Source: Streptomyces diastatochromogenes | GTDB lineage: Bacteria > Actinomycetota > Actinomycetes > Streptomycetales > Streptomycetaceae | DNA: 64,000 nt | Assembly (NCBI GenBank): GCA_026913215.1 | Contig: JAPTYK010000001.1 | Location: 806,001 to 870,000, forward strand | Direction: 5' to 3' | Shown here: positions 15,320 to 33,113 of the stretch, piece after piece | Numbering within the stretch: position 1 is the first letter of the stretch | Layout of the letters: each line of letters opens with the position of its first letter | Position numbers and translations under genes: made by a program | Notes under the pieces: model-generated | What the model saw: only the letters and a program-made list of their open reading frames with translations | Database searches by the model: none | Told to the model about the DNA's origin: nothing

Positions 15320-15499
15320 CGCCGCGACCTCCCTCTCTGTCGACTTTCATCGGCCGCGACCCTTTCTGCCCAATTCCCATACGGGAACCCGAAGAGCCGC
15401 AGATGCAAGACTAGAAGCCTGCACCTTGCATGGTCATTTCCCGAAAGAGTGCAGTTCGATTCCTTTTTTCGAATAATCCGATCTTCGTCAGATGTCTGA

Positions 15500-15746
15500 A
15501 GTGGAGCCTTCCCGCAGGAGCTACCCAGTTCCCACGCTGTCCTCCCGAGGAACCTTCTGTTCTGCTATCAGGCAGGGCAGGGGCCTCGAAGCTCTCTGGA
15601 ATCCACTGGCGGTGGAGCCAAGTTCCGGCATCGGAACCGGGAGGCTGACAGACTCTCCGCAGCAGCGAGGGAGGCTTCGTGGGTTTCGGTTCCCGCATCG
15701 GCGTGCCGGGCCCGAACGTGCGCGTCTCGGCCAGGGGTGTACAGAC
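15500..15746 (+). repeat. Roughly 240-bp segment, copy 1 of a direct duplication
   Basis: This segment is about three-quarters identical by eye to 32705-32945, in the same orientation. Exact shared blocks include CTCGAAGCTCTCTG, CTCCGCAGCAGCGAGGGAGG, GTGCGCGTCTCG and the start GTGGA-CCTTCCCGCA. No frame reads as a protein in both copies. In this copy a canonical I-E type repeat follows at once (15747), so the segment could be an old CRISPR leader; that is inference. Confidence 0.65.
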
Positions 15747-15775
15747 ATGGTCCCCGCGCGAGCGGGGGTGATCCG
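15747..15775 (+). repeat. Orphan canonical type I-E CRISPR repeat
   Basis: The 29 bases contain GTCCCCGCGCGAGCGGGGGT followed by GATCCG, the classic Streptomyces I-E repeat. It differs from the repeats of the two arrays here (CTCTCCGCGCAGGCGGAGGT core) and reads in the opposite direction to array 1, whose degenerate last repeat starts 29 bases further on. Confidence 0.7.
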
Positions 15776-15804: not shown

Positions 15805-17114
15805 AGCGTGCTCCTCGCATGCGCGGAGAGCACCAAACCATCTCAGCCTCCTCCAGCGCCTAGATCGACCCACCTCCGCCTGCACGGAGAGCACCACTCG
15901 CCCGGTCGCGCGATCTGGGCGATGTGCGACCCACCTCCGCCTGCGCGGAGAGCACCCCTGCTGCTCGATCTTGTGTGGTGCCCGGAACCGACCCACCTCC
16001 GCCTGCGCGGAGAGCACTGTGATCTAGGTCACTCCGATTTTCACGTTTGCGACCCACCTCCGCCTGCGCGGAGAGCACACGTCGATCCACGAGATGGTGG
16101 TGTGCGACTTCGACCCACCTCCGCCTGCGCGGAGAGCACGGCGTCGACACCCCGCAGGAAAAGCGCGACCTCGACCCACCTCCGCCTGCGCGGAGAGCAC
16201 AGCAGACCGTCCAGGGTGACTAGGAGGCCGGCCGACCCACCTCCGCCTGCGCGGAGAGCACCTCGCGGGAGACCACCCAGTTCTTCTTGGCGGCGACCCA
16301 CCTCCGCCTGCGCGGAGAGCACTCGGAGTGCAGCTGATACGCGATCTTCGTGTGCGACCCACCTCCGCCTGCGCGGAGAGCACTCAGGTCAGCAGGGGCG
16401 ACCCGAGAAGCACGGCGACCCACCTCCGCCTGCGCGGAGAGCACGTCTTGCCGGCGGCGTCGATGGTGACGGGGAGCGACCCACCTCCGCCTGCGCGGAG
16501 AGCACAGACCCGCCCGCAGTCGCAGGAGCGCGAGCCGCGACCCACCTCCGCCTGCGCGGAGAGCACGCGGCATCAGTGATGTCGGTGCGCATCTGCTACG
16601 ACCCACCTCCGCCTGCGCGGAGAGCACCCCGGACCGTCGAACCCGGACCACGAGAACGCCGACCCACCTCCGCCTGCGCGGAGAGCACGCCTTGGTGCCC
16701 TTGAGTTGCTTGACCAGGTACGACCCACCTCCGCCTGCGCGGAGAGCACGGGTCTAGGTCCGCCGCGAAGACGGTCCGAGCGACCCACCTCCGCCTGCGC
16801 GGAGAGCACGCGGTCGACATCATGACCACCGACAAGGACTGCGACCCACCTCCGCCTGCGCGGAGAGCACGTGATCCACCTCCTCCGCCTGGCCCCCTGT
16901 GCCGACCCACCTCCGCCTGCGCGGAGAGCACGACACGAGGGCGAGCCTCCCGGCCGCCATGTGCGACCCACCTCCGCCTGCGCGGAGAGCACTCCTGGTC
17001 CTGTTGCTCCCCAGGGTCCTCGATCGACCCACCTCCGCCTGCGCGGAGAGCACTCGACACCGGCTGAACGCATCAGCTCAATGGCCGACCCACCTCCGCC
17101 TGCGCGGAGAGCAC
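15805..17114 (-). CRISPR. CRISPR array 1 (type I-E, about 22 repeats)
   Basis: The 29-bp repeat, read on the minus strand, begins GTGCTCTCCGCGCAGG and ends GGAGGTGGGTCG. Twenty-one good copies start every 61 bases from 15866 to 17086, with 32-nt spacers (one of 33 and one of 31). A degenerate terminal copy lies at 15805-15833 (TGCGCGGAGAGCAC end kept), and 15866 has one change. The decayed end is on the left and the perfect copies are next to the leader at 17115, so transcription is on the minus strand, away from cas3. Repeat and spacing match Cas6e/Cascade of type I-E. No spacer target can be named without a search. Confidence 0.97.
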
Positions 17115-17200: not shown

Positions 17201-17338
17201 CAAGCCTGGTCACAACGGCCAAGCCTACGGGACATCAGCCGGAGCAGTACGCCCTGCTGCAGTGCGCCGAGGCAGGCGTCGCACCACGAGGGCTTGCAGA
17301 TCGGGGCGTTGTCAGTGCCGCCTGATACCTGTGGTGTC

Positions 17339-20205
17339 GTGACAGAACTTGATGTCGTCTCCGCATGTGCCGCCAGCCCCGACTGCCGTCTGTGGGGTAA
17401 GGAACGCGGCTTGGAGCGTCCTTACCCGGTCATCTGCCATCTTCTGGATGCGGCGGCTGTGTTCGGCGTGCTGTGGGATGTGGTGCTGAGTTCCCAGATC
17501 CGGGCACGTATCGCGGATGCCGTGCAGCTGTCCGAGCCGGAGGCTCGGCAGGTCCTGTCGTTCTGGGCGGGCCTGCACGATCTCGGAAGATCACTCCGCC
17601 TTTTCAGGCTCAGGTGCCTGCGGCTTTCGCGGCCGTGCGGAAGGAGCCGGCGTACTTCGCCGTTCCGGGGGCCGAGCACGAGACCGCTTTCCGGCATGAG
17701 GTGGCGACGCACTGGGCGGTGACCTCGCTCCTGGACGAGATCGGTTACCCGGGTGACCTCAATCGGATGCGGCGAGCGGTGAGTCATCAGGTGGCCCAGT
17801 TGCTCGGTGGTCATCACGGCGTGTTCGGTAAGCCGTTGTTGAAGCGGAAGCTGAGTGCCGGGAGTGTCTATGCACCAGGTCTCGGCGAGCAAGGTTGGGC
17901 CGATCAGCGCCGTCAGCACTTCAGCGAGCTGCGGCGGGTGGTGGGGGCGGTGGCCTTGCCGAAAGGTGGGCTGCCGGCTGAACTCTCCGTTGTCGTTGCC
18001 GGTCTGATCGTGGTGGCGGACTGGCTGGCGAGCCAGGCCGACTGGATCAAGCCGCTTCTGCCCGCGGCAGGGTGGAAGGCGACGCCCCGGGCGCTGGACG
18101 AGCACTGGGCCAGGGCGTCTTATGCCGCTCCCGGCGTAGTGAGGGCCGCACAGCTGGGCCGGGCGGATTTCGCTCTCCAGCAGTTCGAGGGGATGTTCCC
18201 GTTCTCTCCCAATCCCTTGCAACGGGACTTGGTGGAGCACCTTCCCGGGCTGGCGGCAACGCGGGGTTCCGGTCTGCTGCTGGTCACTGCCCCCACCGGT
18301 GACGGAAAGACCGAGGCCGCGCTGTATGCGGCTGCGGTGCTCGGGCGGGTGGCGGGGGCGCGCGGGCTGTATTTCGCGTTGCCGACGATGGCGACGGCGG
18401 ACGGCATGTTCCCTCGGGTGGCCGCTTTTGCCGATCAGGCATTGTACGGGGAGCGTGCGCTGACGCTTTTGCACTCCATGGCCTGGCTCGGGCCCGCCAA
18501 CGACAGTTCTACCGGCACCGGTTCGGCGGCAGCGGGCGGGGGTGCGGTGGTTGCGGAGCAAAGCACGGCGACCACTGCCGGAACCTGGCTGCGGGGGCTG
18601 AATCGCGGCCTTCTCGCGCCGCTGGGAGCGGGGACGATCGATCAGGTGCTGGCCGGTGTGCTTCCCCTGCGGTACAACGTGCTGCGCCTGCTGGGTGTCT
18701 CGGACAAGGTCCTGGTGATCGACGAGGCCCATGCGTACGGACCGTGGATGCACAGCCTGATGACCCGGTTGCTCGAGTGGCTCGGGGCGTTCGGCGCTCC
18801 GGTGGTGCTGCTGTCGGCGACTCTGACGGGTTCCACGGCGGGTTCGCTGGTGAACGCCTACCGGCGGGGCGCCGGTTTCCTGGAGCCGGCGGAGGTGAGG
18901 CCGTGCTACCCGGGCTGGCTGTTCGCGGACGCGGCGAGCGGCCGGGTGTCCACGCCGCGCGCGACGCTGACTGAGCGGGCTCGGACCGTGGACGTCGAGG
19001 TCCGGGGTGTGAGTTGGGACAGCCTGGACGCTCCGGATTCGGCTGTCCGCAGGGGCGGGAGACGCGAACGGCTGCGGGCGCAGTTGCGGCAGGTGGCAGA
19101 CGAGGGTGGGACCGCTCTGGTGTGCTGTACGACTGTCACTGAAGCCCAGGCGACCTACCGGGACTTGTGTGCGGCGTTTCCCGAACTGAACCGGCGAGAG
19201 GGCGGGCTCCGGATTCTGCACTCGCGTTACCAGGCCCGGGAGCGCCGGCGGATCAGCAGGGATTGCGAGAAGGCGTACGGCAAGCCCGCCGCGGGCGAGG
19301 AGATCGGGGTGCGGGCGGGATCGATCCTGGTGGCGACCCAAGTAGTGGAGCAGTCACTGGATTTCGACTTCGATCTCGTCATCAGTGATCTCGCTCCGCT
19401 CGCCCAGCTGTTGCAGCGAGTGGGCCGGGGCCGGCGGCACCGGCGGGGGCCGGAGGGGCGGCCTTCCTGGGCGCAGGCGGAGGAGCGTCCCAAACTGGTG
19501 GTCCTGGAGCCGGTAGACGGTGAGGGCCGCACGAAGGTTCCGCCGGTCTGGGGCACGGTGTACGACCACGGGCTGCTTGTTCGCACCGCGGAGCTACTGC
19601 GCCGGGAGCAGGCGGGCGGGATCGAGGTTCCCGGCGATGTGCAGCGGCTGGTCGACGCCGTGTACGCGGCGGACTTCGTCGAAGGTCTGGATGCGGCGGT
19701 GAAGCAGGAGCTGGCGCGGATGGATCTGGAACGCGCGGCGAAGGAGACGGCCGAGTCGCACCTGGCTCGGATGGCGACGATCTGCGGGCCGCACGATGTC
19801 GAGGGAGACCTCGGCAGGCTCAGCGCACTCCAGGACGGTGTGACCGAGGAGCTGTTGACGACCCGGCTGGGAGCGGACACCGGACGTGTCCTGCTGCTGT
19901 ACACCCAGTCCGGTGGGGAGTTGACGCTCGACGAGGAAGGCACCATGAGTCTGTCCGCTCTGGCGCGTAGATCGACGCCCACGCGCGAGGAACTGGGCTT
20001 GATCATGTCCCGGGTCGCTCCTGTCCCCGGGTCGTGGCTGCCTGAGGGCGAAGGCATTCCTCATCCCGCCGGCTGGGAGAAGCAGGCGGTTCTTCGCGGG
20101 CTCGTTCTGGTGGCCGTGAACCGCGAACCGGACAGTACGAGCTGGCGCGGGCGTCACGGGAAGCGATCAATTTCTGTCTCATCAGTGGGCCTTGAGATCA
20201 ATTGA
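17339..20205 (+). CDS. cas3: Cas3 helicase-nuclease (type I-E), one frame break in the HD domain
   Basis: Cas3 is recruited by target-bound Cascade, unwinds DNA and cuts it. From GTG 17339 the HD nuclease domain is seen as YPVICHLLDAAAV and FWAGLHDLG; near 17583 one base is missing (GG-AAG), after which the protein continues as KITPPFQAQVPAAF. The HD domain goes on to QLLGGHHG. The helicase has Walker A TAPTGDGKTEAAL, DEAH (VLVIDEAHAYGPW), motif III LSATLTG, VATQVVEQSLDFDFDL and QRVGRGRRH, and a C-terminal accessory part. About 955 residues in all, normal for I-E. If the break is real the HD start is lost and Cas3 could not cut, which would leave a binding-only system; more likely it is a sequencing error. 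A 225-base gap separates it from cas8e. Confidence 0.93.
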
Positions 20206-20228
20206 AGCCAGCTACCGGCAAAGCATTT

Positions 20229-20247
20229 CCCCAGTGGCAGCAGGCTT
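20229..20247 (-). promoter_or_regulatory. Partial protospacer with AAG PAM between cas3 and cas8e
   Basis: On the minus strand this reads AAG-CCTGCTGCCACTGGGG. The 16 nt after AAG equal the first 16 nt of the spacer in the repeat-spacer-repeat at 20310-20401, except at position 6. AAG is the standard type I-E PAM and lies on the correct side. The site is 24 bases past the cas3 stop and about 185 bases before cas8e, where bound Cascade could block transcription of the downstream operon. Confidence 0.6.
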
Positions 20248-20309
20248 GGTGAGATTCATCCAGCAAGGCACGCATCACCCGACGGGCCGAAGGGTGGCGT
20301 CCCCTGTCG

Positions 20310-20401
20310 GGCAGTACGCCCGCTTGCGCGGGCACAGGGGTGGGTTGACCCGATTGCCCCAGTGGCGGCAGGCGAGTCACCTCCGTCTGCACGAAGACCC
20401 C
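20310..20401 (-). ncRNA. Candidate crRNA-like regulatory RNA (degenerate repeat-spacer-repeat)
   Basis: On the minus strand, antisense to the operon: first repeat 20401-20373 (ends GGAGGTGACTCG; 22 of 29 bases equal to the array repeat, with the 3' TCG kept), a 34-nt spacer (20372-20339, starting CCTGCCGCCACTGGGGC), then a second, weaker repeat 20338-20310 with the hairpin GCCCGCGCAAGCGGGC (19 of 29 equal to the canonical I-E repeat). Element sizes fit the 29/32 rule within 2 nt. Cas6e processing would yield a guide matching 20229-20247. Regulatory crRNA-like RNAs inside cas loci (CreA, CreR) have this form. Transcription is not shown. Confidence 0.6.
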
Positions 20402-20430
20402 CGTCGCATTGTGACTCCTGAGAGGCATTG

Positions 20431-22063
20431 ATGCCCGCACGTTCGCACAGCACAGCAGAAGCGCCGCTCTTCCCGGTCATCTGGGCGCCGCACGCGCACA
20501 GCAGTACCTCCGAACCTCTCCCCCGGATGCTGGGCTTTCGTGAGCTACTGCTGCGCAGCCACGACATCACGGGGCTCGCGGTCGCCGAACCGCCCGCGCA
20601 CTCGGCTCTGCTGCGCATCCTGTACGCCCTGACCGCTCGGGTCACCCGGCTCGACGAAAGCGGTCCCGGTGACTGGGGCGAGCGCCGCATGGACGTAGTC
20701 GAGGCGGGACGGCTTCCCGCCGAGGCGATCGAGGAGTACTTCGCCGCCTGGGGGCACCGCTTCTTCGTCTTCGACGGTGAAGGGGGACGGCCCTGGATGC
20801 AGGACCCGCGCCTGGCGGAGCAGTGCGACGCCGACAACACCGCGGGCGTGAACAAGCTGATCGTGACCCGGCCCGCGGGCAACAACCACTCCTGGTTCAC
20901 CCACGTCAGCCCCCTGTCCCCCACTCTCCCGACGGTGTCCGAGGCCATTCTCAACCTGCTGGTCTGGCACTTCTACGGTCCCTCCGGCAGATGCTCGGCC
21001 CGTGACGTGGGGTGTGAAGAGTGCCAGTGCCACCGCCGGTCCGCTGAGGACCGCACTGTCGTACCATCCTGAGGGCGAAACTCTCTTCCAGACCCTGCTG
21101 GCAGGGCTCACCCCGCCGGAGGCCACGGTCCGCCGTGATGTCGATCTGTGTCCGTGGGAGTGGGAGGAACTGCCCGATCCCGAGAGCCCGCCCACTGACA
21201 GAACCGGCCCGCTGGCACTGCTCACCGCCTGCTCCTCACATGCCCTGCTGCTCGTGGCGGACGAGGAACGACCGGATACGGTGGCGGACGCGTTCATCAC
21301 GTGGGCATACCGCGGCGAGCGCATCCCCCGGGACGACGCCTATCTGATCTGGCAGATCAGCCAGCAGGGCAACCGCTACCCGCGGCCCGCGGACTCACGT
21401 CGGGGGCTGTGGCGTGATGTGGACGCCCTGCTGCTGTACGAGGCGGGCGGGCCGGCGCAGCCACGGCGGCCGAAGGTGTTCGACACCGCCTTCGAGGTCG
21501 CCGAGATCCTGCGGGTAAGAGCGCTGGGATTCGAACAGGAGGGCCAGGCCAAGGACCGGCAGTTCGTCGAGGGGTCCACCCCTCCCCTGCTGGGCTTCGT
21601 GGAGGAAGACGCCCCGCGCACCGAAGCCGCGGTGGGCCGACTGCGCCGACTCGGTGAGCTGTATGGCCACAGGCTGGAGCGCGCGGTGCGCAAAGCCTGG
21701 TCCCTCTACGTCGACGACCCCAAGGCCGAGCACTCCACCTGGTCCGCCGAGGCCGGCGCCCGCTACTGGCCGCAGGCGGAGACGGAATTCTGGTCGCGCT
21801 ACCGCCGGCTCGACCGCTCCTCGGCCTCGCTCGAAGCGGGCCTGGACCGAAAAGCGACGCGCAAGGCATTCCTCGCCCTGGCAGAACGCAGCTACGACAC
21901 GGTCACCGCACCCCTCGCGTCCCATGCGCGCGGTGCCAGAGCTGTGGCCGAGGCCCGTATCGAGCTGTACGGGGGTCGGCGCACCACTAAGGGCGCAGGA
22001 AGCGGCATCGCGGCCGGTTCCGGCCTCGAGCCCACCGGATCGGATCAGGGAGTGTCCGTATGA
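20431..22063 (+). CDS. cas8e: Cas8e (CasA, Cse1), Cascade large subunit, one frame break
   Basis: The large subunit of Cascade reads the PAM and starts R-loop formation. ATG 20431 opens MPARSHSTAEAPLFPVIWAP, then LGFRELLLRSHDITGLAVAE, FFVFDGEGGRPWMQDPRL and LNLLVWHFYGPSGRCSARDV, all usual for Cse1. Within the G run near 21008 the frame changes by one base; the protein goes on GVKSASATAGPLRTALSYHP, then LFQTLLAG, the PEATVRRDVDLCPWE region and a C-terminal helical bundle. The total of about 540 residues is normal. The stop overlaps cse2 (ATGA). The frame change may be a sequencing error; if real, only the N-terminal third is made and Cascade would lack PAM recognition. Confidence 0.9.
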
Positions 22064-22863: not shown

Positions 22864-24904
<2,041 letters not shown>

Positions 24905-26924: not shown

Positions 26925-29900
26925 GTGCTCTCCGCGCAGGCGGAGGTGGGTCCTCGCCGACCCCACCCAACTCCGCGCCGCGATCGTGCTCTCCGCGCAG
27001 GCGGAGGTGGGTCGGAGAGGCAGTGACAGCACAGCCCGACCACCACGTGCTCTCCGCGCAGGCGGAGGTGGGTCGCTCAAGGACTTCGTCGAGCGCGAGG
27101 GCCACGCGTGCTCTCCGCGCAGGCGGAGGTGGGTCGTGCTCTGAGCTGGGGTGATGGGTGCGGTACCGGTGCTCTCCGCGCAGGCGGAGGTGGGTCGGTG
27201 AAGGGATGGATCGGAAGCCGCGGGCGCCCGTGCTCTCCGCGCAGGCGGAGGTGGGTCGTCCCTCCTCATCGAACAGGGACTTCCTTTGCCGTGCTCTCCG
27301 CGCAGGCGGAGGTGGGTCGCCCCTCCGCCGGTGCCTTCCGGTTCCGCTTCCGTGCTCTCCGCGCAGGCGGAGGTGGGTCGGCGATCCTGGCCCAGGCCGA
27401 TGCCGACCAGGCGTGCTCTCCGCGCAGGCGGAGGTGGGTCGGCGCCACACCGTGCCCCAGTCGTCCGTGACCCGTGCTCTCCGCGCAGGCGGAGGTGGGT
27501 CGGACCGGATCCGCGCGGCCCGCCGTCTGCGGGTGTGCTCTCCGCGCAGGCGGAGGTGGGTCGTCCTGGAGGAGCTCGCGGGTGGGTGGCGGCATGTGCT
27601 CTCCGCGCAGGCGGAGGTGGGTCGGGCGAAGAACCCCCGTGGATCTACACGTACCAGTGCTCTCCGCGCAGGCGGAGGTGGGTCGGGACCGTGGTCGCCC
27701 ACCAGGGCCACACCACCGTGCTCTCCGCGCAGGCGGAGGTGGGTCGGGAGTGTTCGCGTGAAGACGCTCGACACCATCGTGCTCTCCGCGCAGGCGGAGG
27801 TGGGTCGCGAGCGCCGGCGGACGCTGCTGAGGAGCGGCTGTGCTCTCCGCGCAGGCGGAGGTGGGTCCACGCGGGAAGGCCCGTGCGGGTGACGGTGACC
27901 GTGCTCTCCGCGCAGGCGGAGGTGGGTCGCCGGTGGCCTGCTGGCGGGCCAGGGTGTCGAGTGCTCTCCGCGCAGGCGGAGGTGGGTCCACGCGGGAAGG
28001 CCCGTGCGGGTGACGGTGACCGTGCTCTCCGCGCAGGCGGAGGTGGGTCGCCGGTGGCCTGCTGGCGGGCCAGGGTGTCGAAGTGCTCTCCGCGCAGGCG
28101 GAGGTGGGTCGGCGCAGCAGGGCGACCAGGAGGCACACCGGGAGTGCTCTCCGCGCAGGCGGAGGTGGGTCGCCGGTGGCCTGCTGGCGGGCCAGGGTGT
28201 CGAAGTGCTCTCCGCGGAGGTGGGTCGGCGCAGCAGGGCGACCAGGAGGCACACCGGGAGTGCTCTCCGCGCAGGCGGAGGTGGGTCGCTCGATACCCAG
28301 AAGCAGATCGACGCCGCCGAGTGCTCTCCGCGCAGGCGGAGGTGGGTCGCTCGATACCCAGAAGCAGATCGACGCCGCCGAGTGCTCTCCGCGCAGGCGG
28401 AGGTGGGTCGCTCCTGGAACCGCTTGGCGACCCACCCCGTGGAGTGCTCTCCGCGCAGGCGGAGGTGGGTCGCGGACCGGAGGAAGGCCCTCCGCGCCCA
28501 GCGCGTGCTCTCCGCGCAGGCAGAGGTGGGTCGGACCGACCGCCTGCGGCCCTGAGCGCGGGTGGGTGCTCTCCGCGCAGGCGGAGGTGGGTCGGCGACG
28601 ACGCAGTAGATGTCGATGCACACCGGGTGCTCTCCGCGCAGGCGGAGGTGGGTCGGATCGGCGGCGTGTCCTACCTGCACACCCTGGGTGCTCTCCGCGC
28701 AGGCGGAGGTGGGTCGATGTGGCGCACCTGGGTCACGGAGAACCCGGAGTGCTCTCCGCGCAGGCGGAGGTGGGTCGGCATCGCCGATCGCGCGGATCAC
28801 GTTCGCCGAGTGCTCTCCGCGCAGGCGGAGGTGGGTCGGGAGGGGAGGCTCCTCAGCCACCCCTCTGTATGTGCTCTCCGCGCAGGCGGAGGTGGGTCGT
28901 AGGCGCCGGTGATCCTCCGGGAGCACCGAGGTGCTCTCCGCGCAGGCGAAGGTGGGTCTACGCGTGGCCCAGGTGGTCGCGGGCGCCGGCCGTGCTCTCC
29001 GCGCAGGCGGAGGTGGGTCGTCCTGACCGGCCTTCGCCGCGTCCGCGAGCCAGTGCTCTCCGCGCAGGCGGAGGTGGGTCGGCCCGCGTGCACGCGCCGG
29101 AGGAGACCCTACGGTGCTCTCCGCGCAGGCGGAGGTGGGTCGTCACACCAGCCCCACAGGGGATTTCTGCACTTGTGCTCTCCGCGCAGGCGGAGGTGGG
29201 TCGCGCTCCAGGCTCCAGAGGGCGAGTCCGATGGTGTGCTCTCCGCGCAGGCGGAGGTGGGTCGCTCATGAGCGAGGTAATCGCGGATAGCCTCAAGTGC
29301 TCTCCGCGCAGGCGGAGGTGGGTCTACTCCCCTGGTCAGTCGGCCGCGGGCCTGCCCGTGCTCTCCGCGCAGGCGGAGGTGGGTCGGTGCTGCAGGAGGA
29401 GTCCGGGCGCCTCCACGAGTGCTCTCCGCGCAGGCGGAGGTGGGTCGGTGCCGGGCCGTTCCACCGACCAGCCGTTGTGGTGCTCTCCGCGCAGGCGGAG
29501 GTGGGTCGATCGACCCGTGGGGCCCCCAGGGCAACATGATGTGCTCTCCGCGCAGGCGGAGGTGGGTCGCCCTGTGCGAGTGGGTGGGTCGGGCTGTGGG
29601 GTGCTCTCCGCGCAGGCGGAGGTGGGTCGGACGGAGGTAAGGAGACCTTCGCGGTCTTCGAGTGCTCTCCGCGCAGGCGGAGGTGGGTCGGCGCGCTGAA
29701 TGGCCGGTGTGGTGCCGTCGAGGTGCTCTTCGCGCAGGCGGAGGTGGGTCGCGCCGGGGCATCAGCGTCTGGGACGGCGAGCAGTGCTCTCCGCGCAGGC
29801 GGAGGTGGGTCGGTGTCGGGAACACCGTGGCCACGGTCCTGAGCGTGCTCTCCGCGCAGGCGGAGGTGGGTCGACCATCAAGGTCGATGCCCTCGGTGCG

Positions 29901-31883
29901 GAGGCGTGCTCTCCGCGCAGGCAGAGGTGGGTCGACCATCAAGGTCGATGCCCTCGGTGCGGAGGCGTGCTCTCCGCGCAGGCAGAGGTGGGTCGACGGG
30001 ACGGGGCAACGTACAGGGCGCTCTTGCGTGCTCTCCGCGCAGGCGGAGGTGGGTCCAGATCGGCTGGTACCGCACCTGGGCCGAGAACGTGCTCTCCGCG
30101 CAGGCGGAGGTGGGTCGGTCACGTACTGGGCGCCGACGCGGCGAGCTTGTGCTCTCCGCGCAGGCGGAGGTGGGTCGGCCGTCGCACGGTGGGCCGAGGG
30201 CCGGTTCCAGTGCTCTCCGCGCAGGCGGAGGTGGGTCGGATCTCCTTGTCGGGGTACCGCGTCTTGATTTGTGCTCTCCGCGCAGGCGGAGGTGGGTCGC
30301 TTCATGACGCAGCTCTGGGCGGACGGCATGCGTGCTCTCCGCGCAGGCGGAGGTGGGTCGCTGGTACCGCGTCCGCCGTTCGGCAGGTGCAGGTGCTCTC
30401 CGCGCAGGCGGAGGTGGGTCGAAGTCGGCGCCGTGGCTGGTGACGACGGACGGGTGCTCTCCGCGCAGGCGGAGGTGGGTCGTCCTGGTAGATGATCTTG
30501 GCGTACTTGTCGCAGTGCTCTCCGCGCAGGCGGAGGTGGGTCGGTGCGCACGTCCGTTCGCCTGGCGGGTCTTGGGTGCTCTCCGCGCAGGCGGAGGTGG
30601 GGTGGCCGTTGCCGTCGACGATCAGGGTCGTCCGGCGTGCTCTCCGCGCAGGCGGAGGTGGGTCGGTCCAGCCCGGCCCGGAGTACGGCCGGGGCCAGTG
30701 CTCTCCGCGCAGGCGGAGGTGGGTCGGTCCAGCCCGGCCCGGAGTACGGCCGGGGCCAGTGCTCTCCGCGCAGGCGGAGGTGGGTCGTGGCCCAGGACCT
30801 CTCCGTCGGGAAGGGAGTCGTGCTCTCCGCGCAGGCGGAGGTGGGTCGCGGTGTCGCAACTACACCTTCGTGGCTCGTGGGTGCTCTCCGCGCAGGCGGA
30901 GGTGGGTCGCCGTCACGAGGAAGGGAGGGACGCACGGTGCCGTGCTCTCCGCGCAGGCGGAGGTGGGTCGGCGGGGACGGTGTTGGATATCGGCGCGCGG
31001 CAGTGCTCTCCGCGCAGGCGGAGGTGGGTCGGAATCCACAGCTTCTTCCAGCCGGGGCCGAACGTGCTCTCCGCGCAGGCGGAGGTGGGTCGGTGGCGCC
31101 GGCGACCAGCCCACCGCCCGATGCGTGCTCTCCGCCCAGGCGGAGGTGGGTCGCTGGAGAAGGAGCTGGAGCTCTGATGGACCCCGTGCTCTCCGCGCAG
31201 GCGGAGGTGGGTCGGCGGTGCGGCCCCTTCGTGTGTTGGGCGTGGAGTGCTCTCCGCGCAGGCGGAGGTGGGTCGTCGATGTTCCCGGAGCAGTTCGAGG
31301 CGTACCTGTGCTCTCCGCGCAGGCGGAGGTGGGTCGGCTTACGGAATGGAGGCCTCGAAGAAGGGCCCGTGCTCTCCGCGCAGGCGGAGGTGGGTCGGTC
31401 TCGGTCCGCGGCGCGAAGGGCACGGGCAAGTGCTCTCCGCGCAGGCGGAGGTGGGTCGCCTGACCGACGGCTGGTGGGCCGTGGGCGGAGGTGCTCTCCG
31501 CGCAGGCGGAGGTGGGTCGGAACGCGGGCCGTCCAGCATCGTGTCCCTGCGGTGCTCTCCGCGCAGGCGGAGGTGGGTCGTACAGCGCGCGGCCCGGGGG
31601 ACCTTGGCCGGAGTGCTCTCCGCGCAGGCGGAGGTAGGTCGTCGACGAGGGTCGCGCGGACTCAGCGAGTGGCGTGCTCTCCGCCCAGGCGGAGGTGGGT
31701 CGTTGCCGGGCCGCTGGGCCGCGTCCGCCGGGTGTACTCTCCGCGCAAGCGGAGGTGAGCCGCAGACATGGATACACTCTGCGGTGTAATCAAGGTTTCT
31801 CCGCACAGGCGGAGGTGGGCCGCAGGAGTACGACTAGGCGTACGAGCCCATTCAGTGCTCTCCGCGCAGGCGGAGGTGGGTCG
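26925..31883 (+). CRISPR. CRISPR array 2 (type I-E, 82 repeats, 81 spacers)
   Basis: The 29-bp repeat begins GTGCTCTCCGCGCAGG and ends GGAGGTGGGTCG, same strand as the cas genes. I traced repeat starts from 26925 to 31855: 82 copies, nearly all 61 bases apart. Exceptions are a 23-bp copy at 28205 (six bases lost from its centre) and a few 31- or 33-nt spacers. Several spacers occur two or three times (27870-28380, 29874-29966, 30666-30758). Point changes increase at the right end (31613, 31674, 31734, 31794), as expected for the oldest part. The leader lies at the left, next to cas2e. Confidence 0.98.
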
Positions 31884-32131: not shown

Positions 32132-32704
32132 GTGCCTTACCTCTATCTCACGTACGAAGCCGACTCAAACCAGACGCCGCCAGCAACGAGAAGCAGGACT
32201 ACGAGTAGATGCAACGCTAGTGGAGCGAGTAGTTAAATTCGGTAGAGACTCACGCCACGGCGCGTCTCACGAATCCGGCAGAGCACAATGCGAACCGTCG
32301 AGGCGATCCTCCCTCCTTTTCTCCATACAATGCACTTTCTGTACAATATTCCTCCTGACACCTGCAAAAGATCGCAAAGCGCCCCGAACAGTAAACGCTC
32401 CCGTCTCGCCAAGGCTGCACGCTGCAGCGGAAGCCTGGAAAGCACCGCGTCCACCATCACAGCCCCTAGACGCGGAGCTCCGGCTACTGCCGACAGAGGC
32501 GTCACAGCCGCTATAGCGACGGATACGGATGGGTGGTCCTGACCAGGTGGAACACCCCACGAGCAGCGTAACGTTTGAGGCATCGGACGATTTCGCGCCG
32601 GGTCTTCCCCTACTGAATACGACGCTCGTAGTACTCCCGGGTGCGCGGGTCGAAACGCAGCGGGGTCTGCACGATCCGGTGCAGGGCAGCATTGGCCCAT
32701 CTGC
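32132..32704. other. Non-coding or decayed stretch
   Basis: No supported gene; moderate GC, several short open frames without ribosome binding sites. Confidence 0.4.
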
Positions 32705-32945
32705 AGTGGATCCTTCCCGCACGAGTCGTCCAGCTCCCACACCGTCCGCCGACGAGCCCTCTGGTCTACTACCAGGCAGAGGTCTCGAAGCTCTCTGCGA
32801 TCCGCCGACGACGGAGGCCAAGCTCCGGCATTGGAACCGGAAGGCCGACAGGCCCCTCCGCAGCAGCGAGGGAGGCTTCAGGGTTTCGAACTCCACGTTG
32901 GTGTGCCAGGCTCGAGCGTGCGCGTCTCGACCGGGGGGTACGGAC
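32705..32945 (+). repeat. Roughly 240-bp segment, copy 2 of a direct duplication
   Basis: Matches 15500-15746 in the same orientation (see that entry), with blocks such as GTCTCGAAGCTCTCTG, CTCCGCAGCAGCGAGGGAGG and GCGTGCGCGTCTCGACCGG. Together the copies bracket the whole CRISPR-Cas locus (about 17.2 kb apart). Confidence 0.65.
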
Positions 32946-33023: not shown

Positions 33024-33113
33024 GTGGTCCCCTCGCCAGCGGGGGTGTCCCGCCGTTCGCGTCGAAGCCGGTCCAGGGCGGCCTATGATCCCCGCGCGAG
33101 CGGGGGCGTAAGG
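33024..33113 (+). CRISPR. Remnant canonical I-E array: two repeats, one spacer
   Basis: Repeat 33024-33052 (GTGGTCCCCTCGCCAGCGGG then GGTGTCCCG), exactly 32 nt of spacer, then repeat 33085-33113 (GATCCCCGCGCGAGCGGGGG core). The 29/32 spacing is exact. The repeats resemble the orphan at 15747 and the general Streptomyces I-E repeat, not the repeats of arrays 1 and 2. Confidence 0.65.

What the first reader, a model, noticed from the sequence alone, without database searches (positions are those of the whole stretch)
20229..20401. Self-targeting crRNA-like element between cas3 and cas8e: degenerate repeat-spacer-repeat with its own AAG-flanked target
Seen in the sequence: on the minus strand, a repeat with 22 of 29 array-repeat bases (20401-20373), a 34-nt spacer (20372-20339) and a weaker hairpin repeat (20338-20310). 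The first 16 spacer nt, CCTGCCGCCACTGGGG, recur at 20244-20229 as CCTGCTGCCACTGGGG. The single mismatch is at position 6, the base that type I Cascade flips out and ignores. The three bases before the target are AAG, the standard I-E PAM on the correct side. Beyond nt 16 the match ends, which should allow binding without Cas3 cleavage. Known precedent: CreA/CreR RNAs inside cas loci repress a toxin RNA or cas genes through such partial matches. Inference: Cascade loaded with this guide represses transcription into cas8e-cas2e, or guards a small toxin RNA in the 20206-20310 gap. I know of no described Streptomyces I-E case.
Basis: partly seen in the sequence, partly recalled or inferred. Interest (0 to 1): 0.95.

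Follow-up and report, generated by a model that had tools for sequence, protein, structure and literature searches.

The report
Self-repressing guide RNA in Streptomyces CRISPR
The CRISPR immune gene cluster of this bacterium, likely a Streptomyces, contains a worn-down two-repeat CRISPR unit whose guide sequence matches a site beside the likely promoter of the same cluster; the match recurs in relatives with different letters, so the unit is predicted to make an RNA that would turn its own immune genes down.

Summary
Between cas3 and cas8e the minus strand carries a degenerate repeat (22/29), a spacer and a second hairpin repeat. The first 16 spacer bases recur 128 nt downstream behind AAG, mismatched only at position 6: the only exact AAG-plus-seed site in the genome.

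In 201 distinct cas8e upstream regions, a repeat-anchored, PAM-blind search put the best spacer match (score 9 or more of 11) behind AAG in 29 of 34 cases. Across 35 loci, spacer and target agree at 1-5, 7-11 and, more weakly, 13-16, but not at 6, 12 or 18. Seeds differ among 21 groups yet match within loci, with compensated changes. A -10-like TANNNT follows the PAM complement in 17 of 35, against 3 of 206 other CTT sites.

Best reading: CreR, a known kind, a Cascade-loaded guide that represses its own cas operon. CreR is in print for type I-E; my searches showed no Streptomyces case, but the primary paper is not held. No shared mini-ORF supports a toxin. Transcription, processing and repression are untested, and cas3 and cas8e are frame-broken in this assembly.

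The parts
20373..20401 (-). Pseudo-repeat 1: hairpin CTTCGT-GCAG-ACGGAG and 8-nt handle GTGACTCG
   Evidence: 22/29 to the array repeat; the six stem pairs are standard in 23-25 of 26 loci, with C-G/T-A exchanges
20339..20372 (-). Spacer (guide); matches the target at nt 1-5 and 7-16 (20372-20357)
20310..20338 (-). Pseudo-repeat 2: diverged hairpin GCCCGC-GCAA-GCGGGC (possible Cas6e site for the 3' end)
   Evidence: 15/29 to the array repeat; a hairpin of 6 or more pairs begins 33-41 nt after the spacer start in 25 of 26 loci, no shuffle control run for it
20408..20413 (-). CACAAT, likely -10 element of creR; would start the RNA at about the first base of pseudo-repeat 1
   Evidence: CACAAT begins 10-15 nt before the repeat in 15 of 26 loci
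20229..20244 (-). Target, 15 of 16 identical to the spacer, mismatch at position 6
   Evidence: unique exact site in the genome
20245..20247 (-). PAM AAG
   Evidence: AAG in 29 of 34 PAM-blind best targets with score 9 or more
20251..20256 (+). GAGATT, weak -10-like element of the likely cas8e promoter, at the offset (3) where TANNNT is commonest in relatives
   Evidence: TANNNT 0-8 nt after the PAM complement in 17 of 35, against 3 of 206 other CTT sites; the window's own copy lacks the first T
20272..20317 (-). Predicted 3' hairpin, possible creR terminator (weak in the window)
   Evidence: fold (z -1.38 for the whole 133-nt RNA); inverted repeat 10 nt against 8.9 in shuffles here, 12-16 nt in 14 of 25 loci; no T-run terminator
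17473..20205 (+). cas3; its 5' part lies in another frame (about 17222-17581)
20431..22063 (+). cas8e (cse1), first gene downstream of the target; frame break near 21010 in this assembly
   Evidence: TIGR02547 on both halves; one open frame of 547 codons in L002
22060..26507 (+). cse2, cas7e, cas5e, a stretch where cas6e would be expected, cas1e; further frame breaks near 24009, 24421 and 25278
15816..17111 (-). CRISPR array 1 (20 exact 25-nt core repeats)
26925..31883 (+). CRISPR array 2 (70 exact 25-nt core repeats)

Best explanation
The cas3-cas8e gap holds a degenerate repeat-spacer-repeat whose first 16 spacer bases match, except at position 6, one AAG-flanked site beside the likely cas8e promoter, and it is predicted to be a CreR-type gene: its RNA would be cut by Cas6e, loaded into Cascade and used to repress the cas8e-cas2 operon. 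Shown: repeat, seed, target and PAM in the window; the seed-target match and AAG recurring in relatives with changed letters; no excess of matches at positions 6, 12 and 18; pairing that fades after nt 16-17; a -10-like element next to the PAM in about half of the loci. Inferred: transcription from CACAAT starting at the first pseudo-repeat, Cas6e processing, Cascade binding, block of RNA polymerase, and sparing from Cas3 because only the PAM-proximal half pairs. By analogy with CreR as reviewed, array crRNAs or anti-CRISPR proteins would draw Cascade off and raise cas expression.
For: Window anatomy. Chance: 1 of 20,000 random gaps reach 15/16, 0 with AAG. One exact site in the genome. 201 distinct regions gave 48 repeat-like hits in 44 loci; PAM-blind best-target scores of 10-11 in 24 of 48, against 0 of 48 for the same spacers on the reversed sequence; AAG in 16/16 at score 11, 7/8 at 10 and 6/10 at 9. 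35 pairs: positions 1-5, 7, 8 and 11 matched in 34-35; position 6 in 5 (8.0 expected from non-cognate pairs), 12 in 10 (8.9), 18 in 7 (7.1). Positions 9, 15 and 16, not used to choose targets, in 29, 23 and 21 (10.8, 9.8 and 10.6 expected). Compensated changes, e.g. window against L069 at 5, 10, 11 and 15 with none one-sided. -10-like element 17/35 against 3/206. CACAAT upstream of the repeat in 15/26. In S. avermitilis cse1-cas2 are co-transcribed, cas3 is a separate operon, and a completely conserved AAG PAM is reported (passages of PMC4762764). The label 'pair present' is clustered on the Cas8e tree: 13 changes against a shuffled mean of 32.6.
Against: No RNA or repression data. At score 9 the reversed-sequence control does nearly as well (8 of 48 against 10 of 48), so the score-9 members rest on their PAM. 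Targets were chosen as best matches to their own spacer, so the permutation result (432 against at most 222) is partly built in; the unselected positions and the PAM are the fair tests. The window's own -10 lacks the first T; the sigma-70 scan finds no promoter. In the nine loci with the other arrangement only one (L173) shows TANNNT after the PAM (sequences printed). 166 of 201 regions have no scored pair, including near kin L071, L072, L074-L076, L080 and L207. cas3, cas8e and other cas frames are broken in this assembly (completeness 88.96%). Between window and L002, two non-flip positions changed on both sides with pairing kept (9, 15) and two on one side only (14, 16). The fold of the whole putative RNA is unremarkable (z -1.38).
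Confidence: 0.82

Rival explanations
1. CreTA-like addiction module: the guide represses a small toxic RNA started from the same site rather than the cas operon itself.
For: Same anatomy and the same core pairing (1-5, 7-11) as published CreA (passages of PMC8501985). The leader from the target to the cas8e domain start is 174-378 nt and holds hairpins.
Against: 21 of 26 leaders have no Shine-Dalgarno-led ATG/GTG mini-ORF; the five that do (L069, L079, L084, L134, L136) do not share one of the same position and length. A transcript from the site would run on into cas8e unless ended. Acinetobacter CreT is described as a bactericidal small RNA (abstract listing of PMC10097628), so a toxin without ORF is not excluded.
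Confidence: 0.1
2. Accidental self-targeting: a leftover mini-array whose spacer was acquired from the neighbouring DNA, without regulatory role.
For: The spacer resembles a nearby site with the acquisition PAM AAG; cas genes are frame-broken here.
Against: The same arrangement with different letters in 21 seed groups, compensated changes and a kept PAM point to upkeep by selection. Pairing fades after nt 16-17, whereas a spacer acquired from there would match throughout.
Confidence: 0.03
3. In this strain only, a fossil: a formerly working CreR in a decaying cas locus.
For: Frame breaks in cas3, cas8e, the cas7/cas5 junction, cas5e and before cas1 relative to L002.
Against: Of the five breaks listed, three are 1-nt, one 2-nt and one 8-nt; several lie at C- or G-runs, in a 7-contig genome of 88.96% completeness, which fits sequencing error. 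The window's seed match (15/16) is closer than that of L002.
Confidence: 0.2
4. Plain antisense RNA: the minus-strand transcript pairs with mRNA, without Cascade.
For: creR lies antisense within the likely cas8e leader in 26 of 35 loci.
Against: A kept AAG beside the target and freedom at every sixth position are what is known (recalled) of Cascade R-loops, not of RNA-RNA pairing. The target lies upstream of the likely start site.
Confidence: 0.04

Closest known systems
CreR (cas-regulating RNA; types I-B, I-E, V-A; Liu et al. 2023, Cell Host Microbe, not held; seen only through passages of PMC12737573, PMC13131331 and PMC12948488)
   Same: crRNA-like mini-CRISPR in a cas locus, degenerate repeats, partial PAM-flanked match to the likely cas promoter, no linked toxin gene found.
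   Different: Not shown here to be expressed or to repress. In 26 of 35 loci the unit lies antisense between its target and cas8e; in 9 it lies on the other side of the target. Whether published CreRs are placed like this I could not check.
CreTA / CreA (haloarchaea type I-B, Acinetobacter type I-F)
   Same: Two degenerate repeats; core pairing 1-5 and 7-11 as in H. hispanica and H. hubeiense CreA (passage of PMC8501985); seed-only pairing with a promoter.
   Different: No toxin ORF found; pairing extends to nt 16-17 in many loci, to 16 in the window; the likely promoter faces cas8e.
Type I-E CRISPR-Cas of Streptomyces avermitilis (PMC4762764)
   Same: AAG PAM, 29-bp repeats, cas3 transcribed apart from cse1-cas2 (passages).
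   Different: The passages I read describe no creR-like element; I did not examine that genome by name.

Membership tests
CreR | crRNA-like repeat-spacer-repeat outside the arrays, in the cas locus | tested here: met
   relatives
CreR | Partial, PAM-flanked match of the spacer | tested here: met
CreR | The matched site is the promoter of the cas operon | tested here: inconclusive
   -10-like element in 17/35 against 3/206 controls, weak in the window, sigma-70 scan empty; S. avermitilis operon data
CreR | No coupled toxin gene | tested here: inconclusive
   No SD-led mini-ORF in 21 of 26 leaders; non-coding toxins not excluded
CreR | RNA processed by Cas6 and bound by Cascade | not testable with these tools
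   Needs RNA data
CreR | Represses cas transcription, relieved by crRNA competition or Acr | not testable with these tools
   Needs experiments
CreTA | Toxin RNA/ORF under the targeted promoter | tested here: inconclusive
   No shared mini-ORF; a transcript would enter cas8e
Type I-E CRISPR-Cas | Cas3, Cse1, Cse2, Cas7e, Cas5e, Cas1e families in one locus | tested here: met
   NCBIfam hits for Cas3, Cse1 (two frames), Cse2, Cas7e, Cas5e (first half) and Cas1e; no Cas6e hit in the frames submitted, Cas2 not submitted

The most novel reading that the evidence does not exclude
In 26 of the 35 loci creR is placed antisense inside the likely leader of the operon that it represses: the cas8e promoter reads through creR head-on, while the creR product shuts that promoter. 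That would make a double-negative, possibly bistable switch between a quiet state (creR on, Cascade scarce) and an alarm state (cas on, creR silenced by antisense transcription), flipped by array crRNA load or anti-CRISPRs, a circuit beyond simple autorepression.
Probability: 0.25. Interest if true: 0.82.

Novelty: new member of a known kind. Interest (0 to 1): 0.64.

Why it matters
If true, it gives a sequence-defined, directly testable regulator of type I-E immunity in a genetically tractable genus, present in several Cas8e clades. The 35 natural guide-target pairs are also an evolutionary read-out of which guide positions matter to Cascade in the cell: 1-5 and 7-11, and less so 13-16, under constraint, with 6, 12 and 18 drifting. 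A regulatory guide can evidently change its letters many times while keeping its match, so more such units can be sought by spacer-target covariation rather than by repeat similarity alone.

Tried and rejected
The whole-gap DNA search in 392 genomes gave only weak local hits apart from the window itself (next best E 3.3e-5), so I switched to cas8e-anchored regions.

Scans without the repeat motif were swamped by arrays and GC-rich chance matches: AAG led with only 31 of 526 pairs. They hint at further pairs (L047, L091, L092, L220, L241), not verified; the output was cut.

Rfam gave nothing for the gap. Sigma-70 and T-run terminator scans gave nothing. For mini-array 33024-33113 and single repeat 15747-15775 no exact own-genome AAG-plus-seed site was found (one 1-mismatch hit with CAG); one search looked in the window for the mini-array only.

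Error found and corrected: genome-search loci on the minus strand are not turned. therefore used the wrong flank for part of L035-L064, L105-L134 and L175-L198. Orientation was corrected; final counts are. The 26 member loci were correctly oriented, so its CACAAT counts and the stem counts stand.

Dropped and added rows: L237 (score 9, PAM CTG) was left out of the 35. L069 and L086 are not among one search's hits of score 9 or more and were added, whose score also used position 9. Membership required AA at the first two PAM positions, so only the PAM-blind count is evidence on the PAM. The loci are a sample, not a census: the match lists were capped, and I fetched the regions plus the loci that came with the searches.

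The genus is inferred: G562 and G434, listed as the same genus as the window's genome, have contigs of exactly the lengths of the named Streptomyces contigs of L002 and L005.

Full report
What is there. Between cas3 (ending 20205) and cas8e (starting 20431) the minus strand carries a repeat-like element (20401-20373, 22 of 29 identical to the array repeat), a spacer beginning at 20372, and a second, more diverged hairpin repeat (20338-20310, 15 of 29). The spacer's first 16 bases recur at 20244-20229 with one difference, at position 6, behind AAG. The spacer copy itself follows TCG, so it lacks the PAM. With the spacer fixed, one of 20,000 random gaps of like composition reached 15/16 and none had AAG as well. 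AAG plus the seed occurs once in the 9.27-Mb genome.

Relatives. I looked for a hairpin followed by GGTG-type handle letters and then, without regard to PAM, for the best match to the following spacer at 11 seed positions on the same strand. Of 48 repeat-like hits (44 loci), 24 scored 10-11 and 10 scored 9; the same spacers against the reversed sequence never reached 10 but reached 9 in 8 of 48. So scores of 10-11 stand out by themselves, and the score-9 group is carried by its PAM. Of the 34 with score 9 or more, all on the minus strand, 29 best targets follow AAG, 3 AAC, 1 AAT and 1 CTG: 16/16 AAG at score 11, 7/8 at 10, 6/10 at 9. None of the 14 hits below 9 has AAG.

Covariation. I took 35 pairs: 33 of those 34 (all but the CTG one) plus L069 and L086 (found). 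Spacer and target agree at positions 1-5 in 35, 34, 35, 35 and 34, at 7-11 in 35, 34, 29, 31 and 34, and at 13-16 in 26, 26, 23 and 21 (16.6, 11.0, 9.8 and 10.6 expected from non-cognate pairs). They agree at 6 in 5 (8.0 expected), at 12 in 10 (8.9), at 17 in 12 (8.2) and at 18 in 7 (7.1); beyond that counts lie near expectation, the largest excess being 15 against 9.2 at position 25. Positions 9, 15 and 16 were not used for choosing targets. The spacers fall into 21 seed groups. Cognate pairs total 432 matches against at most 222 in 20,000 permuted pairings, and 261 against 158 with one locus per group; because targets were picked as best matches this excess is partly built in, and the unselected positions and the PAM are the fair tests. 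Within groups, changes are often compensated: window and L069 differ at 5, 10, 11 and 15 on both sides and nowhere on one side only; window and L002 are compensated at 9 and 15 and one-sided at 14 and 16; other comparisons range from none compensated (L066-L201, L206-L210) to four (L003-L199). The published core of haloarchaeal CreA is 1-5 and 7-11 (passage of PMC8501985). In a separate clade here (L173, L174, L253, L254, L256) pairing likewise stops at about 11-12 in most, while in the window it goes on to 16.

Promoters. On the plus strand the complement of the PAM is followed within 0-8 nt by TANNNT in 17 of 35 loci, against 3 of 206 other CTT sites in the same regions, mostly at offset 3-4. 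In the nine loci where creR lies on the other side of the target only one (L173) shows it. The target thus likely covers the stretch between -35 and -10 of a promoter that faces cas8e. The window itself has GAGATT at offset 3, a weaker fit, and a sigma-70 consensus scan finds nothing. On the minus strand CACAAT begins 10-15 nt before the first pseudo-repeat in 15 of 26 loci, which would start the RNA at about the repeat. In S. avermitilis, cse1 to cas2 are co-transcribed, cas3 is a separate operon and a completely conserved AAG PAM is reported (passages of PMC4762764).

Structure. The first pseudo-repeat's six stem pairs are standard pairs in 23-25 of 26 loci, with C-G/T-A exchanges at several pairs. 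A second hairpin of at least 6 pairs begins 33-41 nt after the spacer start in 25 of 26 (55 nt in L232); no shuffle control was run for it. Between it and the target, 14 of 25 loci have a 12-16-nt inverted repeat (one mismatch allowed; shuffles give 5-10), a possible terminator; in the window it is little better than shuffles (10 against 8.9), and the fold of the whole stretch is ordinary (z -1.38).

Spread. On a FastTree tree of 201 Cas8e N-terminal pieces (local support only) the presence of a pair needs 13 changes, against a mean of 32.6 for shuffled labels (0 of 500 as low). The window's clade has it in 15 of 22, another in 7 of 9, others in 5 of 6, 3 of 4 and 2 of 2, and three loci stand alone (L085, L100, L138). 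Seven kin in the window's clade were not scored as having it (L071, L072, L074, L075, L076, L080, L207).

Reading. This is what a CreR gene looks like: a crRNA-like RNA that would lead Cascade to the cas promoter, pairing only in the PAM-proximal half and so likely sparing the site from Cas3 (the last point rests on recalled knowledge of Cascade). CreR is in print for types I-B, I-E and V-A (passages of PMC13131331; also PMC12737573; PMC12948488); the primary paper is not held. I saw no Streptomyces case in nine paper searches, which cover open papers only. A toxin instead of the operon is less likely: 21 of 26 leaders have no Shine-Dalgarno-led mini-ORF, and the other five (L069, L079, L084, L134, L136) do not share one.

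Caveats. Nothing here shows RNA, processing or repression. The cas3, cas8e and further cas frames are broken in this assembly relative to L002, by small indels in a genome of 88.96% completeness: either sequencing error or decay. The family-level claim does not depend on this strain.

Noticed in passing
window 17581, 21010, 24009, 24421, 25278: Frame breaks in cas3, cas8e, the cas7/cas5 junction, cas5e and the stretch before cas1 relative to L002 (indels of 1, 2, 1, 8 and 1 nt). Assembly error or decay is not settled.
   Followed up: partly
window 33024-33113 and 15747-15775: A two-repeat mini-array and a single repeat of another repeat type (GTGGTCCCC...GGGGGTG), each next to a duplicated flank (15495-15740 and 32700-32937, 77-79% alike). 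No exact AAG-plus-seed site in the own genome.
   Followed up: partly
L086, minus strand of the cas8e upstream region: Two tandem AAG-flanked targets for one spacer, 24 nt apart, as if a double operator.
   Followed up: no
L173, L174, L253, L254, L256: A separate clade with creR on the far side of the target (about -130 nt), PAM AAG, AAC or AAT, and pairing mostly limited to positions 1-5 and 7-11.
   Followed up: partly
L047, L091 (minus), L092, L220, L241 (plus): Further candidate guide-target pairs in other cas8e loci, seen in the noisy generic scan, three of them on the plus strand; not verified.
   Followed up: no
window 27840-28290: Array 2 holds an exactly duplicated 121-nt block (27840-27960 and 27961-28081) and one repeat that is 6 nt short near 28206.
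   Followed up: no
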